From NCBI GenBank assembly GCA_027603065.1, contig JADGJP010000040.1, forward strand, positions 154,630 to 218,629: a stretch of 64,000 bases of DNA, written 5' to 3'. Source of the DNA: Geranomyces variabilis. Its lineage: Eukaryota; Chytridiomycota; Chytridiomycetes; Spizellomycetales; Powellomycetaceae. A program made the position numbers and the translations under genes. The notes beneath the pieces are model-generated. The model worked only from the letters and a program-made list of their open reading frames with translations, was not told the DNA's origin and searched no databases. Positions 7,383 to 63,266 of this stretch are shown piece by piece. The stretch's first letter is position 1. Every line of letters starts with the position of its first letter.

Positions 7383-10300
7383 TTATGTGGCAAAGCTGAC
7401 TGCCTTCGATCCGACAATCGCTGGCAACTGATTGCCAGTAACCCCGGCATGTGCGACGGGTTGCATAGGCGGAACGTGACGAGCCTCAATGTTGATTGCC
7501 AAACGGCGCGGCACCTCGGCAATTGCAAGGACTTCCAAGTTCCGGATCTGCTTGTCACTGTGTTTACCTATCTGGCGCAGCTTGTTGATTTCCCTGTATT
7601 TTGATAGCAGTCAGTGGACAGGCAGTGGCCTCCAAAACATGCGGCAAGGCGTACCCTATTAAGCGGCGGTTGACCATGACCGTTCCGACGGAATCCAGCC
7701 TGAACTTGGCTGCGTTATTTTCTACCATTCTTCGCAGAGCCTTGACGCGTTGACGAAGGACCTGCTGCTGCATCTGATCTTCCCTTGCAACCTCGCTATC
7801 AACTTCAACCAGCGTCAACTCCTCGTTTGGCAACCCTGCGAGGTATTTGCTTGCCATGCGGCTGACTGCTGCTCGTAATACTGCCGAATCTTGTAAGTAC
7901 GTGATCACGCCATGAATGTCTGTGCTGAAAGCTTTGATCTGGTGCTGTAACTGATGAGCCTTCCGGTGCTGAATGGAGTAGTCTGTCTTGGTAACCCCAA
8001 GCTTGTCGGTCAAGTCTTGTATTGACACCTTAAAAGCTGCCTTGTGCGCAGATAAGGCCTCCAGCGAGTTGTTGATGTCTTTGATATGTCCAGTCATGTC
8101 TCGAATGTGATTTTCTCGGGGTTCAACTTGCTCTTTCAGTTCTTTAATCTTGGCATCCAAGACAAACTTAAACTTTTCCAGCTCCTGATTCTTTTTCTTT
8201 AAGTCGTATACACGCCGCTCCTTCTCCTGGATAGCAATGTCGCGCTCGGACATCTTTGAAAGCAACTTGTGAGCTGTAATTTGCGGAACGTTTTGATTCA
8301 GCGTGATAACTTACATCGCCCTTCAGCAGCGAGATTTCCTTTTCCAGAGTTTCAATCACGCCTCTCAGTCGCTTCTCATCGGCACGCATCCTCGCCGTTT
8401 CGATTCGATTGTCATCGATATCTTTGGTAAGGGTATTAAATTTCTTTCGCATAATTCCGTTCTCTCCTTTCAAGCGCGCGCCGTCTTCTCTTTCCGCAAG
8501 GAGCTTGCGCTGATAACGTTGATGTAGCCGTTCGATTTCAGTGTCGATGTCTTCCTGCACTTGTCGCTGTTCCTCAATGTGCTCAGCATATTGCGTGCCC
8601 ATTCTCGCTCGGAGCTGTAAAGTCAGTTTAGTAGCAAGCCGTGATGAGGTTCTCCAATGTCCTTCCACAACAAACCTTGTCCATTTCAGCCGTTTTCTGC
8701 TCCAGTCTTGATTCCCACAAGCCCTGTGCTTCCCTCAAAGTCGCTTGAAGCTCCTGTTCACGCATGGTGGTATGCGCTTGCCAGGTTGCTTGCATTCGGT
8801 TAGTTGCGCTCTGTGCATCCTGATACTTGTCGTATTCGGCCATCAACTGCTGACTGTACATTGCCTCACGGTCCTAACAAGCCAAGGCATGAGCCAATTG
8901 AGACGTTGATGTGGGCGCTGAAACCATATCCTACCTACATGTAGCTCGGCCGCGTGTTTGTCGACCGCTCTGCTGATGGCCTCCTCATGCATAATTTCCA
9001 GTTTCTCCTTGTCTAGCCGCAGCGAGGACGTTGTCTTTTTCAGCATATCGAGCTGATCCATAAAGCGTTCCGTCATTTCTTTCAATTTTTCGTTGAAATT
9101 CATATCTCGAAGCCGCAGTTGATATTCGTGCTCTATCTGCAGCTCTTCTAGGGATCGCGCAAGCTCCGAAGCTTGAATTGTCTTTTCTTCGAGATCGGAT
9201 TTTGTTATGAGAACCTTTCGTCCGAAATTAGAGTTAGTTTAAAATGAAAGGGCCATGAACAGCATGGGAGACTGCTCTCACCTCGTCTGCATACAGATTG
9301 AGCCTTTCTTTTTTGAGACCTCGTTCCTCCTTTTCCGAAATGGCAAACGAGTAAAGGATGCCGTCCTCCGATACGGTAAACAAATATTGGTCATCGTAGG
9401 AAACTCGCATCATGGTAACTGCTCCGCCATGAGCAACATGTTCTTGAAAGTCATCAGGGTGCCCGGAAAGTGGAAATCGGAGAGACCTAACCGTGCCGGA
9501 TTGTGTGCCTGATACGAAAGCATATGTTAGCGCACAAGGTCACCAATAGATAAATGCAGGAGGCAAACAAACCTGCAAACAGCATCCGTCCAGAGGTCGA
9601 CAGAACTATTTGCGTAAGCACCTGATCGGACTCCATCTCTAATGTAACTGTAGATTCTGTGATTTCCTACAGTTGCACGAGGACCGTTAACGCCTGCCCT
9701 GCGGATGTGTTGCTAATGAGGTTGGTAAGATTCCGCACCTTAAGTGTCCGGTCGGCGCCCACTGCCCACATGGTTTTCCCATCCGCAGATGTTATCGCAC
9801 AGCTATATGAAGTGCTCTTCAAGATATACTCGTTGTCGCGTTTCAATTCAGCAAGGTTCCAAGAGTAGACAGCTCCATCAGCGCCCGCTGACACGAGATA
9901 TGCGTCGTTTGGCGTCCAACAAAGCGATTTGATGCGACCATTATGGCCCTTAAAGTTTGCAACATTATCGCCGGTCCAAGTGTTGAAAATCTGAATTATG
10001 TTTCCATGCGTCGCGGCGAAAAGATGGCCACCTGTCGAAAATCGACACTACACACAGGCAAAGATGAGTCACAAATGATCTGTAACATATTTCGACTGCT
10101 TCGTACCTCGCGGCAGCCACGAACGCCAACTTCTCGAAAGACGCGGAGGTCATCCAGCAAAATGGTGTTTAAACGCAGCTTGTCGTTAAAACCGATGAGC
10201 AGGTGTAGACCACTTGGATGCATCGAGACAGAATGAGGCTCTTCATTATAGATTTTCACGAGCTGACATGTGTTGCTGAGGTAGTTCCAAATGCGTATTG

Positions 10301-37939: not shown

Positions 37940-40848
37940 CTAAGGTCCCCCTCCCTCCAAATCCTCGAGCATTTCATCCGTCGGATTTGAAATTCGATGA
38001 AAAGCAATCCCTGAACGGTCTGTGTCTGTCAGCACATTTGATGCCAGCACCTGTGATCCAGCAGGTCCGGCGGCGGAAATATTTTGCGCCGACAGACCAG
38101 TTTTGTGCTCGCCCAACCGCATTTCCAAGTGTCGTACGCGCTGCCGAGCGGACTGCAGCTCCGCCTTCAATCGATCAATGCTAAGCCCATGACCAGCAAG
38201 GCTGGTGATGCCGTCAATGACTGAAAGACCGAACAGCCCAGACACTCCTCTCGAATCGCCATCCGCGTGACCGCCGGCGCGGCGCTTGTACAGAAAGAGA
38301 GTATTTCTGCCCAAAAAAACCAATTAGATGGCCATGCCGGTAAGCGAAGAGACATGTGCCACTTACAGCAATAGGTAGTGCACGGTGCCCCGTGCTAACA
38401 GTGCCAAGTTTGTAATTGATGCCAAAAACGGCGACAAGTGCCATCCATCCCGTTGCAAGATCAAGATTTCAATGCAAACTTGCGGAGAACGACCAACGAT
38501 AAAAGCTGCAAACGTACAGAATCTGCGGATCCATTAATCGCTGCACAATCATCGCGCTCAACCCTGCGCAAATACCTTAGCGCCGCGCATCCTTTTGGAG
38601 AGAACGGTGCTTGCGTATAGGTGAGCGTCTCGCCGATTTTGCTTGCTAAAATCTCTACCAGCTCCGGATTCAGCACAGATATCATTAAAACCGGCGGCAG
38701 GGCGCTCGAATTTGCCTCAGCCCATCGCCGAACGGAAGATTGCTGGAGCTCTAATTTGGTGTGTCAATGGGACAGCAATCAGTTAAACTCGAAGACATGG
38801 GCTTACCGTAGTACAGGAAGAGGATTACAATGCCCACTTGTAGAGCAAGCTGTACAGAAAAAGCCGTGATGGCCACAGCGAAATAATAAGGATGCGGATC
38901 CTGTACTAGGAGCCTTATGAACATAATGTCGAGGATCTGTAAGCCCAGCGTGGCCGCATGGTCAGCTTGGTGACAAGCAGGCTGGTCGCTTTTACGGAAG
39001 AAAACCGGTACCAGCTCAATGACCGCGCCTACAGCGTTTGGGATCACTTGCACGTGGGCAAGAGGATACTTGCGCTTGGCCCAAAAGTATGCAACGCCAG
39101 TTATGAAAATCGCGCCGAGCCAGACCGAGATCAAAACAACATTAGATCGAAAAAGGTCCATTATGGTGTCCTCTAAGAGAAAATCTTGTCAAAAGGAAAG
39201 TAATAGTAACTGGCCAGCAAGGAAAAGCGCTGAAGCTTACCGAATCCAGCCTTCCCGCACACCAGCCGTCCATCGGGCGCCGTGCGAGTCCCTGCGGGAC
39301 ATCCAAGGCATACAATCGCACCCGGCTGATCAGCGGCTGAAGAACTGAGCTGTGATGTCGCTGAAGAATAAGTTCCCGGGGCACAAGGCGCACAAGCGTT
39401 TCCGGTGCCCATGGTGCCTGAAAACGATCCCGGTGGGCACGGAGTGCATATGCCCGCGCTCTGTGGCTCGGTTCCAGGTGGGCAGACGGTTGCTTCAACT
39501 TCAGTGCAGACGTGAAAGGTGCTTTGTCCCGGGTTTTGACAGAAATGCAGTGAAGGCGCCGTCCAGTTCAAACCATAGATGTCATGATCTCCTGCTAAGG
39601 AGGCAAGCGCCCACTGCATATAAGAGTTGTCGGACATGGGAGATGAGCTAGGGTTTGCTGCTAGCGAGTTTGTATCGTTGAGAACTGCAACGGTCTTGGC
39701 TAACGCTACTGGGTCGATGTTCCCGACGCCAAGTTGACTTGGATTTAAACGTGTGAGACATGAAGCTTTACTAGCTCAGGGATTAGCGTAGTGAGCCTAC
39801 CTAGGCCAGACTAGCCGGTTCACTTCACGCATCATCCAAAGCTGATGGGGCCCGTGATCACTAAACATATTGACACATTCGAGTTCGTGATCGCGGCAGT
39901 ACATCCAGCCCCTTGCAGTAGCACGCAAAAAGCGCCGAGTAATGTTTTGATTGTACGGCACGGCCAGCCACTCGGATGAAGCAAACACATTGTCCTCCAG
40001 CATGGCGGTCCCGAGGTCTTCAAAATCGAAGATATTCAGCTCTGAAGGCTGGAAAAGCACGCCGGTGTTTGGATTCACAACCTCGTACAGTTGTGCCAAC
40101 TCGTTGTATACGAGTACGCTGACCGCGGCCACACGGCTGTCATCCGTTGCAAAAAGCTTGTATGGAGTGAACCCTTGCTGCCGCTAATCTGCATGCGTTA
40201 GGAAATTCTGCCCACTCTCGAAGATCTTCTTCCCGACGTACGATTGTAACATTGTGCATGCCATATTTGGTGATGGCCGCTCTTGCGGACATATCGTTTA
40301 GTGAGCCGACAAAGAGGGAAACGCTCTTATTATCCAAATCGCGAAAATCTTGGATGTCGCCGCGCAATTCAGTAACCAGACGGGAGCCCGTCCTTTGGAA
40401 GTGCTGCATGATGACCGTGACATTGCTGCCGCCTGAGTGAGCATTAACTACCTTGGACGTCCAAGAGTTTCCCAATACAGCACGGCTGTTAGAAGCAAGA
40501 TATGAGCAATAATGCCGTTTCAGGAAGGAATTGATGTTTTCCATACCCCTCTGAAACTTCTGACAGCCCATCAAACGTAGGATCTCCTTGGCGAATCTGC
40601 ACCCCCAAACACTCGTCCGCGTAGTATCCCATTGATGAAGCCTAAAAATTTGCGCCCAGAAAGCGCGTCAAGAAAACTGTCCCAGGAACACCACACCGCC
40701 GGGTACCTCGTACCGCCTGAAACCCTGCGAACTGGGCTTGCCATGACCAGTTCAACTGGAGCGAAACTTTGTCCGTCACACTGCATGTTAATGCTAGCCC
40801 GCCTCCCGCTAGAAGGCAGAGCGCACCGAGAGCGAAAGCAGTTTGCAT
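37940..40848 (-). CDS. Predicted surface protein: NMT1/THI5-like binding domain, Cys-rich module, membrane segments, coiled coil
   Basis: Nine exons (40848-40714, 40641-40565, 40485-40242, 40183-39801, 39737-39241, 39172-38807, 38750-38576, 38522-38367, 38306-37940) give 799 aa. Residues 1-22 form a signal peptide (ALGALCLLAGGGLA). An NMT1/THI5-type substrate-binding domain follows (about 25-330): VSLQLNWSWQAQFAGFQ, MGYYADECLGVQIRQGDPT, QQGFTPYKLF, AVSVLVYNELAQ, FEDLGTAML, GVGNIDPVALAKTV. It lacks the CCCFC signature of the yeast HMP-P synthase. A module with ten Cys (about 345-445) matches GCC2/GCC3 (CTPCPPGSFSG; CAPCAPGTYS). A clear membrane segment begins near 455 (VVLISVWLGAIFITGVAY), with three to five more hydrophobic stretches, and a C-terminal heptad region (RLKAELQSARQRVRHLEMRL). 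Such a layout suggests a ligand-binding surface receptor; the ligand is unknown. Confidence 0.78.
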
Positions 40849-47095: not shown

Positions 47096-48374
47096 ATGCC
47101 GCAAACTCGAAGCGCATCATTACGCTCTGCCACCACCCGATCGTCGACTCCACCGCTTAACGACTCGCCACCCTCGCAGCCCAACTCACTCTCGCCCTCG
47201 CCGTCCCCTCCGCCAGCCCTTTTACCTGAAGACGCCGAACCGCTACCGGGATCATATTTCCATCCTACTCATGTCCCAACAACCCCATGCACGGCTTCGT
47301 GGACTCACCATACTCCCGTTCCTGCCGCCCTAGCTAATGGCGAAAAGGCATGTTTGGGCGTCGATGAGGCCGGACGCGGGCCAGTCCTCGGACCGATGGT
47401 GTACGCGTGCGCCTACATGCCTCTCGACAAAAAGGACGAACTGGCAGCACTTGGAATGGATGGTGAGCGTCCGCGGCACATGCGGCACCTCGGCCTTTAC
47501 GAAACGATTGGCGCTTCACTAAGGCGTTTTGTGTACAGATTCGAAAGTTCTCAAAGAAGAGCAGCGCGACGAACTGTTCAAGCTGATGGAAGGTCACGGC
47601 GATTGGATTGGGTGGGGCGTGCATGCCTGCAGCCCACAGGACATATCTGGATGCATGCTCCGGCGGGCGAAGCATAGTCTGAATGCGCTGGCGCATGACA
47701 CGACAATCGAGCTGATCCGAGAAACAATCGCGCGTGGAATCAATGTGGCAGAGGTTTACGTTGACACGGTCGGCCCACCAGCATCATATGCAGCCAAGCT
47801 GCAGACATTCTTTCCGGGAATCCGAATCACGGTCGCCAAGAAGGCAGATTCCCTATATCCTTGTGTTAGCGCGGCCAGTATTGTCGCGAAAGTATCTCGC
47901 GACGCGGCATTAAAAGGCTGGAAGTGGGTGGAAGGCGTTGACGGAGTCTTTACCAAAAGATTTGGGAGCGGGTATCCATCCGGTAGGCTCAAGCTGTTAT
48001 GCGCAACTCAGGAAAGCGGAGGTCACCTTGCTGACTTTTCCACATTTGTAGACCCAAATACCGTGAAGTGGTTAAACGAGCATGTGGACCCCGTGTTTGG
48101 CTATCCAAGGCTCATGCGGTTTAGCTGGTCTACGTGTGTCAAGATTCTGGAGGATAAAGCGGTTGGGGTCATGTGGTGAGCTCATCAAAATTTAACTGCA
48201 TCTGGCACATATGGCAACTCGTACTTATGCGGTCGTCGTCCTGCTTTCAACAGGCCCGCAGACGAGGAAGAAGAGGAAGGGGCGGACATCCGTGGCTATT
48301 TTGCGAAAAAGGACGCACCAGTAGCGTCTAGAGACACACTTCTATCTTCTTTTAAGCACCTTTCTCGTATTTAG
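47096..48374 (+). CDS. RNASEH2A: Ribonuclease H2 catalytic subunit A
   Basis: Four exons (47096-47462, 47539-47982, 48052-48175, 48254-48374) give 351 aa. Residues 1-80 are a Ser/Pro-rich extension not found in human RNASEH2A (299 aa). The active site begins [16 protein letters not shown] (D90, E91), followed across the first junction by [10 protein letters not shown], then [28 protein letters not shown], and FGSGYPS-DP across the second junction. [20 protein letters not shown] is also typical. The C-terminus is acidic, then a possible PCNA-interacting-like end (GYFAKK...LLSSF) is seen. The enzyme removes ribonucleotides from DNA and RNA:DNA hybrids in the nucleus, normally in a trimer with subunits B and C, which are not in this window. 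Confidence 0.96.
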
Positions 48375-54133: not shown

Positions 54134-56464
54134 TTAGCGGGAGCTTCCGCGCATAAGGGTTAGAAAGGCCTCTTGAGGGAGCTGGACACCGCCTGCCATT
54201 GTCTTGAGCCTTTTCTTTCCAGCTTTTTGTTTGTCCAGCAACTGTAGTTGTCGAGATTTGCGTTAGTCTTCCGCAAACGGCGGCGATCACACAAAAACAC
54301 TGCGTACCTTCATCCTCCGCGTAATGTCCCCGCCGTAGCACTTTGCCGTAACATCTTTTCGCACAGCTGTGATTGATTCTCTGCACACAACGCGATTGTT
54401 GACCGCCGCTTGAATAGTAATCTCAAACAACTGCCTGCTCATAACGCCTTTCAAGCGTTTCGCCCAATCCTTGGCAACGCGATCGGCAGCCGACCGGTGT
54501 ACAATTGTCGCAAGAGCATCGACCGCCTTCCCGTTGAGCAGAATGTTGACTTTGACAAGGTCTGCGGCCTCATATCCAATCTCTTCATAGTCAAAGCTGG
54601 CGTATCCAGACGTCCGCGATTTGAGCTGGTCATAAAAGTCCGTCAAAATTTCCGACATCGGGAGCGTGTACTTCATCATCACGCGGTTGTCGTCTATAAA
54701 TGTGTAATCCTGCTGTTCGCCGCGATGCGCTCCGCAAAGATCCATCAGGGGACCAAGGTATTCGGACGGAAATACCAAAGTGCCCGAAACCATCGGTTCC
54801 AAAAACGCCGCGACCTTGGCGTGTTCTTCAATATCTGGGAATTGAGCTGGATTTCGAATGATCTTTTCGGTGCCGTTCGTGTACTTGACGATATACGGCA
54901 CAGTAGGCGCCGTGTTGATAACTGTGGAATCGTATTCCTCTTCCAGACGCTCCCGAAACACGTCCATATGCAGGGTTCCCAAAAAACCCAACCGAAATCC
55001 TTGACCAAGCGCCACGCTAGACTCTTTGGCGACGCTGACGCTCGCGTCGTTCAAAGTAAGTCGATCCAGGGCCTCTTGCAGCTTGGTGTAGTCGACAGAG
55101 TCTATCGGATACATTCCGGCAAAGACCATTGATTTTGCTGGTTCGAATCCGGGGAAGGCTTCGACCGGCGAGCCCTCGCGATAGAATGTGTCTCCAATGT
55201 GGGCATCCCGAGTTGTCTTCATCCCAAGAACAACATAACCGACTTGCCCGCTCTCCAACGAGGCCGTAGAAACTTGGTTTGGGAACATTATTCCAAGATC
55301 TGTAACCTCATAGGAATTGCGGGTATGTGCGCTGACAATCCTATCGCCTAGTATGCACGTCGTTTCAGAAGAAAAAGTGGTATTTCGTCCGAATGGGAGT
55401 ACACCTTACCCTTGCGAAGATTGCCGTCACGAACGGCGACAAGACACACCACGCCGACAAATTTATCGTACCAGCTGTCAAACAAAAGCCCGCGAAAAGG
55501 AGCGCTTGCGTTTGCAGTAGGAGCATCCACTTGCTCGATGATGCGAGGGAGCACGTCCTTGACTCCCAGTCCAGTTTTTGCTGAAATTGACAAAACGTTG
55601 GACACATCAAGCTCGAACGTCGTCTCGATTTGACGGGCTACTTTTTCAGGGTCTGCGCCGGGAAGATCGATTTTGTTTAAGACGGGTATAATGTTGAGGT
55701 CTTCGCCGATGGCAAGGAAAAAGTTGGCGACCGTTTGCGCCTGGATGCCCTGACATGAGTCGACGAGCAGCACGGTGCCTTGACAAGCTGCTAGCGACCG
55801 CGAGACCTCGTAGCTAAAATCCACGTGTCCGGGTGTATCAATAAGATTTAATAAATAGTCTTCGCCGTTGTGATTGTAGATCATCGACGCAGTCTGTTGC
55901 GGTCTTTATCAGTATTGTGCAATGGGCTTTTGCTGCGGACTCCGTGGACAAAGACTTACCTGAGCCTTGACGGTAATGCCTCGCTCTCGCTCCACCTTTA
56001 ACTTATCGAGAACTTGCTTGTTGACCGAGTCTTTTGAGATTGTCCCGGTCAATTCGAGCAAACGGTCCGCGAGCGTACTCTTTCCGTGGTCAATGTGAGC
56101 AATGATGCTGAAATTTCGTACTCGCTCCGGCGGAAAGTCCCGCATGTCAATTTTATCTGAAGCCTAATTCGAACATAAATATGGCATCCAGACGGGCAGC
56201 TTTGCCGCGAGGGGTTCTTACAGTGGCAAACGTTCGACAGCGGAGTCTTGTATCCGCGCCACAAAAAGGAGCACGCCCTCGCGAGACCAGTGAGGGCCAG
56301 ATGGCAGATAAACCATTCCGTTGAATCGCTCGTGCTTGATGATATTGGCGGTCAGACTGGCAAAAGCAGCAGCGGGAACTTTGGAGCGACCTCGGTCGCG
56401 GACGAGGAACGTTCCTTCTAAGAGCGCAAGCGCCCAGTACCCGGAGGCCAGCAGGAGCAACCAT
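54134..56464 (-). CDS. GUF1: GUF1/LepA (EF-4), mitochondrial back-translocating GTPase
   Basis: Five exons (56464-56222, 56163-55960, 55893-55410, 55347-54308, 54241-54134) give 692 aa. Exon 1 is a long Arg-rich mitochondrial presequence with no Asp before residue 70. The GTPase motifs are AHIDHGKST (103-111), [20 protein letters not shown] and SAKTG. Downstream are the LepA-specific regions [45 protein letters not shown] and the C-terminal [18 protein letters not shown]. The first splice acceptor used (at 56163) is the one that keeps the frame; the next AG downstream does not. GUF1 supports mitochondrial protein synthesis under stress. It shares a 227-base divergent promoter with a PPR gene, also probably mitochondrial. 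Confidence 0.96.
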
Positions 56465-58287: not shown

Positions 58288-60419
58288 TTACCGCGCTGGC
58301 GGTATCGACTTCATTCGAATTATTTGTTGGTTGACCTCATCCATCAATGCGGCTACCTGTTTTGAAATGCCCTTATAGTCGCTCTCCGAGTTTTTGGTGC
58401 TTATATCTTGAACGAAAAAAGCACAATGAGTGAGATATTATCGCTCGACCGCGCCGGTCCCAGATATGGCGACTTACATTCTTTCAGATGGAAATTTGTT
58501 CCTTCAATGTGCCGCAAGCGCTGCTCAAGCGTCCCAAGCTGTGCTGCGGTCTCGTTTTCATGCAGGGACGCTTTTTTGGCGTCGTGCTTAGCTGATAAGT
58601 TTTGCTGCACCTGATACCGAAGGGTATCCCGAAGCGTCAAGAGCTGGGTGCGCTCCTTTTCATTTCGCTGTGAAAGATAAAGATAACTGTGTCAGCCAGG
58701 ACGTCGAGTATCGTAAACAAGGTTTATGAACCAACCTCTTTCGCTTCCTCGACGTCGCGCTTGATGCTTTCAACGTCCGAGATTTTCCCAAGTTCACTGC
58801 GAACATTCGACAGCTTGGTACGCAGGTGTGCAAGTTCAGCTGTCATTTTCGTTTCGAGCGAGTTTACTTTCTCGAAATCGCTCAAGCGGCGGTCGCGCTC
58901 TGAATTCATAACAATTCAAGGTACATCAATACGGCTAGCGTGCACGATGCGTGTGTATGAGTCGTGGATTGTACCTTGAATGAGCGCTTCCATGGTCGTT
59001 TCCGAAGTCCGCATCTCTTTCTCCTTAAACTTGAGATCGCCTTGCAAGTCATGAAAGACTTCCGGGGAGGGCAGCGTATCCGGTTTTACCAGTGACTGGC
59101 GGGATGAAGCAGGTCAACATCGAATCTCAAGCGCTTTTAGACTGGGAGTAGCAGCAACTCACACGCATGCGCTCGAGCAACTCGACAATCGTCTGTTCTA
59201 CTCCGGTGTTTCTTTCCTCGGCGTCCGCTTTGCGCTTCTCGAACGAGTCGAGAAATGCTTGCATATCTCGATCGCGCTTAAGCAGTTCCTCGTACTTTGC
59301 ATTCTTTTCCGCCTGGTTCGAGTCAAGCTCCATATCAAGGCCGCTGACCGTTTCTTTCAGCTTGGCAGCCTGGTCTTCGAGTTCCAGGATTTTTCGCTCC
59401 ATGCCCGATGTTTCTTGATTGGCCTCTTTCACCTGGCGTGTGACCGTCAGGTCAGCTTTCTAGCTCGTCGCGAATGCATTGAAAGGGTGAATAACCCGCG
59501 TACCTGTTGTAAGAGTCTGCTCTTCTCCTGAGGACCAGACTCGCCCTCTAGTTCTTTGATTTGCGCCTCCATCTCGGTTTTCTTCTTTGCCAGCTCGGCA
59601 ACTTTTTCACCGAGATGCAAAGCGCGCAATTTGACAGGCTCCTGCTGCAGTTCCTCCTGCAAGTCCGCAGCCTGTTTATCCAACACCGCTAACTCCGCCT
59701 GCTTGGCACCGATCTCTGCGGCGTACGTTCGATTCTCTTCTTTGAGCTCAAGGAAAATGGCCCTTCGCGTGTCGTCAAGCTCCGCAACTTGTTTCTCAGC
59801 CCGCTCTTTCTCAACTTCGATCTGAGACTCTAAATCCCGCACCGCCGCCTCCCTCGCCTGACGCTCCTGAAACACATCATCCAGAACAATCTCGTCGCGC
59901 TCGTTTTTGGCCCGCAATTGCTGGCAATGCCGCTCAATGTCCTCGAGGTCGGTGTCAGTATGCAGTTTGTCGACTAGGGTGTTGAAGTCGCCTAGTGTGC
60001 CCTGAAGCTCACGCAGCTCGCCGGCAAGCCCATCGGCACGTCTTTCAAATGAGGCGTAGTTTGCGTTTTCTTTTGACAAGACATCGTATTCGGCGTTGAG
60101 ACGCGCGAGCTCGGCTGAGAGCAAGTTGATTTTTTGTCGAAGCTCGGATTGAAAGTAGGTAATGTCTTGGATCATCCGTCCAGGACCTAGATGAGAAAGA
60201 GCGTTTAGTAATACCGACAGGGAAAAAGCGTCGCCGCATCCAATAAGCAGGAAGGGTTGTACCCTGCGCTCCGGTTCGCATGCCTCCCAGTCCCTGTTGG
60301 GTCATTGGACGGTCTACTACCTGATACCCGAAACTACCGCGCATGTTGGTTCCAGGTCGTCCGGTAGCGGGCGGACCTGCTCTCGTCTCTATAGCGAGCG
60401 TGTCAGAATTTTCGGCCAT
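58288..60419 (-). CDS. IFT74: IFT74, intraflagellar transport complex B core protein
   Basis: Seven exons (60419-60263, 60186-59504, 59432-59163, 59095-58975, 58899-58736, 58667-58478, 58406-58288) give 567 aa; human IFT74 is 600. The N-terminus is shorter than in animals but keeps DRPMTQQGLGGMRTG. The rest is coiled coil with family blocks: ITYFQSELRQKI, YASFERRADGLAGELRELQG, DFNTLVDKLHTDTD, ERQAREAAVRDLE, EELLKRDRDMQAFLDSFE and the C-terminal TNFHLKE-Y..KNSESDYKGISKQV. IFT74 pairs with IFT81 to bind tubulin cargo. In animals the basic N-terminus strengthens tubulin binding; here it is reduced. Shares a promoter region with kinesin-II, the motor that moves IFT trains. Confidence 0.95.
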
Positions 60420-60844: not shown

Positions 60845-63266
60845 ATGTCGGCCGCCAAAGTCTCTGCCCCAAAACCCTCAACCGAGAATGTCATCGTCAC
60901 GATTAGATGCAGACCCTTTTCTCAAAAGGAAGCAGCAGCAGGGCACAAAAAAATAGTGGCAATCGACCCGCAAACAGCTTTCATCTCGCTCACAAATCCA
61001 AAATCCGAAACCGACGTCAAGAATTTTACGTTTGATGCCGCATTCGATGAAACGTGCAAGCAAGTTGAAGTGTATGATTCGACCGCGCGCATAATTGTGG
61101 ATGCAGTGCTGAGCGGCTTCAACGGGACGGTTTTCTGTTATGGTAAAGCCCGCAGCGTAGTGCGCCTAGAAAAGTGCGACTTTGGTCTCAGCTAACGCTT
61201 GGAACCCCGCCCCATGAGATCAGGTCAAACGGGCACGGGCAAGACCTTCTCCATGCAAGGGATCAGCGAAGTTCCCGAATTGCGTGGAATCATTCCGCAA
61301 GCTTTCCACCACATTTTCTCGCACATTTCGCACCGCTCTACGGAGAAGAAGTTTTTGGTTCGGGTTTCATTCCTGGAAATCTACAATGAGGAGATCAAAG
61401 ACCTCCTCGTCAAGTCGCCGAAAGGTGGAGCGAAAACTGCAGGCTTGGAATTGAAAGAGCATCCCGAAACCGGCGTGTACGTCAAAGATCTTGGCACGCA
61501 TATCGTCAAAAGCGTGCCCGAGATGGAGGCTTTGATGACGCTGGGCAACAAAAGCCGGTCGGTTGGCGCAACGCTGATGAATGAAAACTCGTCGCGTTCG
61601 CACTCCATCTTTACTATTACGGTCGAGAGCTCGGAACCTGGACCGGATGGAAAGGATCGCATCGTTGCGGGCAAGCTGCATCTTGTTGATCTCGCGGGCA
61701 GTGAGCGACAAAATAAAACGGGAGCAAGCGGAGACAGATTGAAGGAGGCTGCAAAGATCAATCTCAGTCTGAGTGCGCTCGGCAACTGCATTAGCGCGCT
61801 TGTGGACGGCAAGAGCTCACATGTTCCATATCGCGACTCAAAGCTGACTAGTAAGCGTTCATACACACAGAAACATAGGTGCACATACCTGTCAGCAGCC
61901 CTAACACACTTTTATCCATTCTCTTTCAGGACTTTTGCAAGACTCGCTAGGTGGAAATGCCAAAACTCTGATGATTGCGACGCTGTCGCCAGCGTCGTAC
62001 AATTACGAAGAGACCGTTTCCACCCTCCGATACGCAAACCGCGCAAAGTCAATCAAGAACAAGCCCAAGGTCAACGAGGACCCCAAGGACGCCATGCTCA
62101 AATCGTGCCAGGAGGAAATCGAGAAGCTAAAGATGGCACTCGCAGCACGGCAAAAGGGCGCTGGCGGAGGTACCCCGGGCCAGCCACGAATCATCACAAA
62201 GGTTGTCAAGAAGCTGGTTGTTAAAAAAGTGCCAAGAATTCGGGAACATCATGCGCAGGCCGATGAAGAAGAGACGGAGGACGAGGAAAGCGAAGACGAT
62301 GTGGAGGAGGAAACTGACGACGTGATTGTGGAGGAGCGCACGGATCAGAACTCTGATACGGAGAACCCGCTCGCTGACTTGGATCCAGAAACGATCAACA
62401 AACTCGAGCAGCAGGTCGAAGCGGAAAAGCAGGCCCTTCTGGCGTCCAAGGACATGCTAACATCCGAAAAGCAGCGGATAGCTGCGGAGCTAGAGCAGCG
62501 TGCAAAAGAGCTCGAAGACGAACGCAACATGCGCGAGATCCTGGCCCAGAAACTTCGCGCGCTGGAAACGCAAATGGTTGTTGGAGGAGGCGAAGAAGGA
62601 GAAGAACCGGATGTTGTCGGAGGATTCCTTAAGCGCATTGAGCATCAGCAGATTCAACTGCAAGAGACCCAGAGCAAGCTACAGGAGCAGGCACTGCGAG
62701 AAACGCTCCTCCAACAACAGCTCGAAGCGCGGCAGGACTTGCATCTGCAAATGGAGGAACATTACGCTTCACTGCAGGAAGAAGTTGACATCAAAACGAA
62801 AAAGCTGGGAAAGCTGTTCACACGGTTGCAAGCTGCCAAGACAGAAATTGGGGACCTTGAGGACGAATTCCGCGCCGAGCGAGAGGACTTTTTGGATACG
62901 ATTCGCGAGCTCACGAGAGAGCTTTCGCTCAAGACAACAATCATTGACAACTTTGTGCCGATAGACGAGCGAAAAAAAGTAGAGTCCGGTGCCGTGTTTG
63001 ACGAAGAAACCGATGAGTGGTTTGTGGCAGGAGTGCTCGAACGGCATCTCGCAAAACGGTGTGAGCGACCGCGGAGCCTCGGGGACACAGTCCGGCGACC
63101 GATATGTAGATATGCAAGAATGATGATGAGCGTCGGCGACCCGAGTCCACGATGGCGGATAGACAACATTTTGACACTGAAGGTATTGGCACAGGAAAGC
63201 ACTCGTCCGGATTAGACCGCGCTCTGACGCACTTTCTCTTTCCAGTTGGACAGCTCTGATCGATAG
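60845..63266 (+). CDS. Kinesin-II (KIF3/FLA10-type) anterograde IFT motor
   Basis: Four exons (60845-61142, 61224-61850, 61930-63182, 63246-63266) give 732 aa. The motor domain starts with [16 protein letters not shown]-loop GQTGTGKT at 100-107 spans the first intron. Switch I is [13 protein letters not shown], switch [17 protein letters not shown], then [14 protein letters not shown] and [18 protein letters not shown] across intron 2. The neck reads [25 protein letters not shown], a kinesin-II hallmark, followed by a Lys patch, an acidic segment and a long coiled coil. The tail [12 protein letters not shown] and NILTLKLDSSDR matches kinesin-II C-termini; the last exon is only 21 nt. Whether it corresponds to KIF3A/FLA10 or KIF3B/FLA8 is unclear. 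With IFT74 it confirms intraflagellar transport. Confidence 0.95.

What the first reader, a model, noticed from the sequence alone, without database searches (positions are those of the whole stretch)
37940..40848. Signal peptide + NMT1/THI5-type binding domain + GCC2/GCC3-like Cys module + membrane region + coiled coil in one protein
Seen: after splicing nine exons, one 799-aa frame has a signal peptide, substrate-binding motifs (QLNW, GYYADE, QQGFTP, YNELAQ, GNIDPVALAKTV), ten cysteines in a GCC2/GCC3 pattern, four to six hydrophobic stretches and a C-terminal heptad helix. Known: NMT1/THI5 domains are periplasmic binders in bacteria and HMP-P synthases in fungi; here the fungal CCCFC catalytic motif is missing and the domain is predicted to be outside the cell. 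Inference: a sensor for a pyrimidine-like or other small ligand, possibly for zoospore chemotaxis. This is my best candidate for an undescribed system.
Basis: partly seen in the sequence, partly recalled or inferred. Interest (0 to 1): 0.78.

Follow-up and report, generated by a model that had tools for sequence, protein, structure and literature searches.

The report
Fungal receptor with bacterial pyrimidine-binding-type domain
A fungus, probably one with swimming spores, carries a gene that joins a bacterial-type small-molecule binding domain, whose bacterial relatives often sit beside uracil-breakdown genes, to a cysteine-rich stalk, a hydrophobic membrane region and a coiled coil, so it looks like a cell-surface sensor whose ligand can now be guessed and tested.

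Summary
It is not a THI5 enzyme: CCCFC and the aligned catalytic His are absent. Its best prokaryotic relatives are ABC-importer binding proteins, 29-39% identical in the 80 loci kept. Of these 80, 37 carry a dihydropyrimidinase homologue and 5 others a uracil phosphoribosyltransferase, against 0 of 20 more distant NMT1 loci. This supports a pyrimidine-related ligand, though one pocket-lobe motif is changed. The membrane region matched no Pfam family, 7tm_3 included; the number of passes is unresolved. PBP-II receptors are already in print for zoosporic fungi, as class C GPCRs with other binding domains (PMC3251606, PMC5168858), and secreted NMT1-domain proteins for algae (PMC9544697). I read this as a new variant of a known kind: a ligand-gated membrane receptor built on a probably horizontally acquired bacterial binding protein. 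Chemotaxis is unproven.

The parts
37940..40848 (-). whole coding span, 9 exons: 40848-40714, 40641-40547, 40485-40242, 40183-39801, 39737-39241, 39172-38807, 38750-38576, 38522-38367, 38306-37940; 805 aa
   Evidence: splice model; coding bias
40789..40848 (-). signal-peptide-like hydrophobic N-terminus, residues 1-20
   Evidence: hydropathy only; no signal-peptide program was available
39590..40776 (-). NMT1/THI5-type PBP-II domain, residues about 25-335, across exons 1-5
   Evidence: PF09084 E 2.8e-24, residues 38-257; 29-39% identity to the 80 best prokaryotic loci
39257..39541 (-). cysteine-rich module, ten Cys at residues 352-446, in exon 5 with the end of the binding domain
38288..39167 (-). 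hydrophobic, probably membrane-spanning region, residues 454-690; strongest segments 463-481 and 558-576
   Evidence: exon 6 alone folded as helices at low confidence (pLDDT 64)
38096..38179 (-). C-terminal heptad (coiled-coil-like) segment, residues about 727-754
39173..39240 (-). intron 5, which joins the ectodomain exon to the membrane exons; if kept, the frame ends about 22 residues into it, before any membrane region

Best explanation
The gene encodes a plasma-membrane receptor. Shown by sequence: a bacterial-type PBP-II domain of one NMT1 subfamily, fused in one exon to a ten-cysteine stalk, followed across one intron by a hydrophobic region and a heptad segment. Inferred: the domain lies outside the cell, closes on a small ligand, and passes the movement through the stalk to the membrane helices, with the coiled coil holding a dimer inside the cell. 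The ligand is most likely a pyrimidine or pyrimidine breakdown product (uracil, dihydrouracil, N-carbamoyl-beta-alanine or beta-alanine class), because about half of the best bacterial relatives lie in uracil-catabolism or uracil-salvage neighbourhoods. The ectodomain was probably acquired from bacteria. A role in nutrient finding by zoospores is plausible but not shown.
For: Gene model and motifs; NMT1. Closest solved sequences to the subfamily profile are 4nmy, the formyl-aminopyrimidine-binding 3ix1 and THI5. A high-confidence model of bacterial relative L023 (pLDDT 95.3, 24 rows) has as nearest folds thiamin-bound 4nmy, 3ix1 and Thi5. Dihydropyrimidinase homologue in 37 of 80 loci and uracil phosphoribosyltransferase in 5 others, against 0 of 20 other NMT1 loci (Fisher p 4e-5 for 37/80 against 0/20, rows not independent). 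Within the five genomes that gave the controls, 2 of 5 subfamily loci have dihydropyrimidinase and 3 of 5 have dihydropyrimidinase, Zn ureidopropionase or PreA, against 0 of 20 (p 0.033 and 0.004). The protein keeps 40 of 52 positions that are at least 90% conserved in the subfamily, among them YNE and HQ. It falls on the Actinomycetota/Chloroflexota side, apart from Alphaproteobacteria and Bacillota. Bacterial precedent for an NMT1-type ectodomain on a signalling output: L127, with PAS and GGDEF.
Against: Twelve of 52 conserved positions differ, among them most of the GVWxxGN loop of the second lobe, so the ligand may have changed. The conserved QAQFAG stretch was the search pattern, so its conservation among the 80 loci is partly by selection. 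Bacterial neighbourhoods do not prove a ligand: 37 of 80 loci had none of dihydropyrimidinase, uracil phosphoribosyltransferase, Zn ureidopropionase or PreA (43 had at least one). No output domain was recognised in the membrane or cytoplasmic part. No eukaryotic collection was on hand, so conservation of the architecture is untested; viral contigs gave no relative. Membrane predictions are weak. Whether the protein lies inside or beside the bacterial clade is open (p-AU 0.101), and its branch is long.
Confidence: 0.55

Rival explanations
1. It is a strongly diverged class C GPCR: flytrap domain, cysteine-rich linker, seven helices and a coiled coil as in GABA-B receptors, signalling through G proteins.
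For: Same order of parts; seven hydrophobic stretches by Kyte-Doolittle; weak NCD3G match, E 0.022. Fungal class C GPCRs with PBP-II ectodomains are known in Allomyces and Spizellomyces (PMC3251606, passages) and gut fungi (PMC5168858, passages).
Against: No 7tm_3 match with the limit at E 10 (HMMER filters drop most matches above about 0.1). The published fungal class C receptors were collected by a 7tm_3 match (PMC3251606), so this protein would not have been counted among them; very diverged ones would be missed by both. Only two helices are strongly predicted.
Confidence: 0.25
2. It is a transporter, channel or capture protein: the flytrap domain hands the ligand to, or gates, a membrane pore. 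A salvage variant is that the ligand is a thiamine-type pyrimidine, as proposed for secreted diatom NMT1-domain proteins.
For: The bacterial relatives feed importers: ABC ATPase homologues in 75 and permease homologues in 75 of 80 loci. SBP-II proteins with TM helices of unknown homology occur in gut fungi (PMC5168858, passages). Diatom, haptophyte and cryptophyte NMT1 proteins with signal peptides are hypothesised to serve pyrimidine-moiety salvage (PMC9544697, passages). 3ix1 and 4nmy bind such compounds.
Against: No permease or ATPase domain was recognised in this protein; weak hits to ATP synthase A (E 0.05) and Ninjurin (E 0.27) are far below cut-off. The solved thiamine-type binders are more distant (best E 7.9e-5) than the uracil-neighbourhood proteins.
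Confidence: 0.15
3. The gene model joins two genes, or intron 5 is normally kept, so that a secreted binding protein and a separate membrane protein are made.
For: Without splicing intron 5 the frame stops after about 22 residues. No transcript data.
Against: GTAAGC donor and pyrimidine-rich CTTAG acceptor keep the frame; coding bias continues in exons 6-9.
Confidence: 0.05
4. It is an HMP-P synthase (THI5) or a decayed one.
For: Same Pfam family and PDB matches to THI13/THI5.
Against: CCCFC absent; the residue aligned with His66 is Lys88 and that aligned with the Lys four residues before it is Ser84; hydrophobic leader; higher identity to bacterial SBPs.
Confidence: 0.01

Closest known systems
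Bacterial NMT1-subfamily ABC substrate-binding proteins beside dihydropyrimidinase or upp (e.g. L023 Ruicaihuangia, L028 Chloroflexota, L003 Qingshengfaniella)
   Same: Binding domain; 36, 37 and 31% identity over 291-329 aligned positions for these three; 40 of 52 subfamily-conserved positions
   Different: Those stand alone beside importer genes; here the domain is fused to a stalk and membrane region in a eukaryote, with an altered second-lobe loop
Fungal class C GPCRs with PBP-II ectodomains (Allomyces, Spizellomyces, gut fungi; PMC3251606, PMC5168858)
   Same: PBP-II ectodomain, multi-pass membrane region; GCC2_GCC3 is listed among domains in the receptor-family figure legend of PMC3251606
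   Different: The binding domains named there are LysR_substrate, PBP_like_2, OpuAC, SBP_bac_1 or sugar-SBP-like; the word NMT1 does not occur in either text; they were collected by 7tm_3 or class C matches, which this one lacks
Secreted NMT1-domain ('SSUA/THI5-like') proteins of diatoms, haptophytes and cryptophytes (PMC9544697)
   Same: Eukaryotic NMT1 domain with signal peptide, likened to bacterial ThiY (passages)
   Different: Likened to ThiY; no receptor architecture is described in the passages that I saw
THI5 HMP-P synthase
   Same: NMT1/THI5 family
   Different: Catalytic residues absent; membrane-protein architecture
Bacterial NMT1-PAS-GGDEF sensor (L127)
   Same: NMT1-type domain ahead of signalling domains in one protein
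   Different: Output is diguanylate cyclase; bacterial; more distant binding domain (26% identity)

Membership tests
NMT1/THI5-like (PF09084) | match above curated cut-off | tested here: met
   86.7 against 20.5 bits, residues 38-257
Bacterial pyrimidine-neighbourhood SBP subfamily | subfamily-conserved residues | tested here: met
   40 of 52 positions kept, 18 of the 28 that are rare in controls; QAQFAG was itself the search pattern; one lobe loop changed
Bacterial pyrimidine-neighbourhood SBP subfamily | tree placement within the clade | tested here: inconclusive
   falls on the Actinomycetota/Chloroflexota side (98-99 SH-aLRT); nested or sister unresolved, p-AU 0.101
Bacterial pyrimidine-neighbourhood SBP subfamily | binds a pyrimidine or its breakdown product | not testable with these tools
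   no binding data for this protein or, in what I read, for its close relatives
   no CCCFC; aligned residue is Lys88 (His66 from the PDB title of 4esw; its catalytic role is recalled)
Class C GPCR | 7tm_3 membrane domain | tested here: not met
   no match at E up to 10 for the 355-residue C-terminal part
Class C GPCR | NCD3G cysteine-rich domain | tested here: inconclusive
   E 0.022, 15.1 bits against a cut-off of 38.9
Class C GPCR | type-I ANF_receptor flytrap | tested here: not met
   ectodomain is PBP-II NMT1; gut-fungal members also lack ANF (PMC5168858)
GCC2_GCC3 / Ephrin_rec_like (PF07699) | match above cut-off | tested here: inconclusive
   21.5 against 23.1 bits

The most novel reading that the evidence does not exclude
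Zoosporic fungi evolved a receptor family, outside the GPCRs, with an unrecognised multi-pass membrane module, and captured from soil bacteria a uracil-pathway binding protein as its ectodomain, so that spores detect pyrimidines leaking from decaying or living cells.
Probability: 0.3. Interest if true: 0.72.

Novelty: new variant of a known kind. Interest (0 to 1): 0.52.

Why it matters
What zoospores of early-diverging fungi sense, and with which receptors, is to my knowledge largely open. A receptor whose binding domain can be traced to bacterial proteins of known metabolic context gives a short, testable ligand list. It would also be a further case of a bacterial transport component turned into a eukaryotic sensor, with a membrane part that current family models do not recognise.

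Tried and rejected
Whole-genome search of the source: none held. Relatives of the full protein in viral contigs: 4 pattern hits, none confirmed. Membrane-region relatives: PDB by sequence only Ninjurin-2 at E 0.43, Pfam only ATP-synt_A 0.05 and Ninjurin 0.27. From memory I thought the membrane region resembled an 'EDIPQ' region seen in chytrid proteins and XK-related scramblases; a motif scan of viral contigs found 0, a looser one in the window 0, and the window protein has GRSPQ there, so this stays an untested recollection. I also recall 'SsuA/THI5-like' annotations in chytrid proteomes; no held collection could check that, and it lowers my novelty claim. A second copy in the window: none. 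Rfam and tRNA: nothing found in the window. Paper searches for NMT1-type receptors in zoosporic fungi; no listed title or abstract start named one (open-access library only). Passages were read in PMC5168858, PMC3251606, PMC12842992, PMC8778642, PMC10406608, PMC6572847 and PMC9544697; no whole paper was read. sought ligand evidence for the bacterial SBPs; passages of PMC3546935 and PMC6801745 show dihydropyrimidinase beside or with ABC-transporter genes but no ligand for an NMT1 protein. Rejected: THI5 enzyme.

The 20 controls are a choice from 62 NMT1 matches in six genomes and come from five of them (none from G003); six subfamily members were left out; L124 is cut short (9103 bases); 8 of the 20 still match the window domain weakly (22-29% identity). 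Two of the 20 controls have an aldehyde dehydrogenase hit. Opened plasmid loci against the pattern: L006 (LLM oxidoreductase, nucleoside hydrolase), L008 (F420 genes), L001 and L009 (no dihydropyrimidinase listed); L005 carries no annotation. L006, L008 and L071 were left out of the second tree, L006 and L008 out of the conservation count.

Full report
What is there. The minus strand of 40848..37940 splices through eight short GT-AG introns into one open frame of 805 residues. The frame that the splicing gives scores best of the three sense frames by codon use in all nine exons, as a near tie in exon 5 and narrowly in exon 7. The end of the binding domain and the whole cysteine module are in one exon, so this fusion is visible in the DNA. 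The link to the membrane exons depends on intron 5.

Parts. Residues 38-257 match NMT1/THI5-like PF09084 at E 2.8e-24. Ten cysteines, with three CxxC pairs, lie at 352-446; Ephrin_rec_like scores just below its cut-off and NCD3G weakly. Residues 454-690 are hydrophobic, with seven merged stretches by Kyte-Doolittle but only two strong ones by a rough insertion scale with recalled values, a number that 74 of 300 shuffles reach. Exon 6 alone was predicted helical at low confidence. A heptad segment follows near 727-757. Seven N-x-S/T sites lie in the first 345 residues, as expected for a secreted domain but not proof.

What the binding domain is. Plasmid records gave 37 with matches; ten were opened, one of them without annotation. 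Four of the nine annotated ones (L003, L004, L007, L010) have a dihydropyrimidinase within the stretch shown; L002 has a methylmalonate-semialdehyde dehydrogenase, an aminotransferase and, next door, a chemoreceptor gene; L001, L009, L006 and L008 have other neighbours. In these 80, tblastn finds dihydropyrimidinase homologues in 37, class III aminotransferase in 32, methylmalonate-semialdehyde dehydrogenase type in 27, nitrilase/ureidopropionase type in 20, Zn ureidopropionase type in 8, and PreA in 3. Dihydropyrimidinase hits are 38-80% identical to the two queries, which NCBIfam names dihydropyrimidinase. Five Chloroflexota loci without dihydropyrimidinase carry a uracil phosphoribosyltransferase, named so by NCBIfam in the three that I tested; three of the five (L011, L014, L024) are among the five rows nearest to the window protein. 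In 20 loci of other NMT1 proteins, from five genomes that also hold a subfamily member, none of dihydropyrimidinase, Zn ureidopropionase, PreA, nitrilase, aminotransferase or uracil phosphoribosyltransferase was found; two had the aldehyde dehydrogenase. In those five genomes 2 of 5 subfamily loci have dihydropyrimidinase, 3 of 5 any of dihydropyrimidinase, Zn ureidopropionase or PreA.

Tree. With 20 controls the window protein falls among mainly Actinomycetota and Chloroflexota rows (98 and 99 SH-aLRT for the sets of 61 and 49 rows). Without controls the split from Alphaproteobacteria and Bacillota is kept (99), but whether the window protein lies inside or beside the remaining clade is open (p-AU 0.101). 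Its branch is long. Bacterial origin of the domain is the simplest reading, but no eukaryotic collection could be searched.

Pocket. Of 52 positions conserved at 90% or more in the subfamily, 40 are the same here, against 25 of 124 poorly conserved ones; the QAQFAG stretch counts among the 52 and was the search pattern. The GVWxxGN loop is changed; a gap can be placed so that its glycine is kept. I take this as a related but possibly shifted ligand. Closest solved proteins bind thiamine, a formyl-aminopyrimidine, or are THI5. THI5 function is excluded by the missing residues.

How it likely works. Ligand closes the flytrap, the stalk transmits, the membrane region responds, the coiled coil pairs two chains: this is inferred from the order of parts, by likeness to class C receptors and to bacterial sensors such as L127, an NMT1-type domain with PAS and GGDEF. 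No output domain was recognised.

Prior knowledge. Krishnan et al. 2012 (PMC3251606; passages) found class C GPCRs of Allomyces and Spizellomyces with LysR_substrate, PBP_like_2, OpuAC and SBP_bac_1 domains; NMT1 does not occur in that text. Seppala et al. 2016 (PMC5168858; abstract and passages) found such receptors with sugar-type SBP-II domains in gut fungi, and SBP-II proteins with TM helices of no known homology. A 2025 classification (PMC12842992; passages) counts class C homologues as enriched in Blastocladiomycota and Chytridiomycota and has no occurrence of NMT1 or periplasmic. PMC9544697 (passages) reports NMT1-domain genes in nine of 19 diatom genomes, most with a signal peptide, hypothesised to serve pyrimidine-moiety salvage; so a secreted eukaryotic NMT1 domain is not new as such. 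The present protein differs in its fusion, in its subfamily and in lacking a 7tm_3 match.

Source organism. Not identified. A kinesin gene is present, and two other frames look to me, from memory only, like IFT74 and CFAP57, which would fit a flagellate fungus. That it is a fungus at all is inferred, from gene content and from memory.

Noticed in passing
61196-63215 (+): Kinesin motor gene (Pfam Kinesin); from memory like kinesin-2, a flagellar motor.
   Followed up: partly
59447-60301 (-) and 7564-8310 (-): Coiled-coil-like frames that resemble, from memory, IFT74 and CFAP57; no Pfam match at 0.001.
   Followed up: partly
L127:4765-6810 (-): Bacterial protein with NMT1-type ectodomain, PAS and GGDEF: binding protein turned sensor.
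   Followed up: partly
L002:5929-9353 (+): Relative of the binding domain followed by a methyl-accepting chemotaxis protein gene in Azospirillum.
   Followed up: no
L016, L037, L054: Relatives for which no ABC gene was found in the held stretch with the two queries used; not examined further.
   Followed up: no
47523-48179 (+) and 54287-55405 (-): RNase HII and LepA-type GTPase genes, ordinary.
   Followed up: yes
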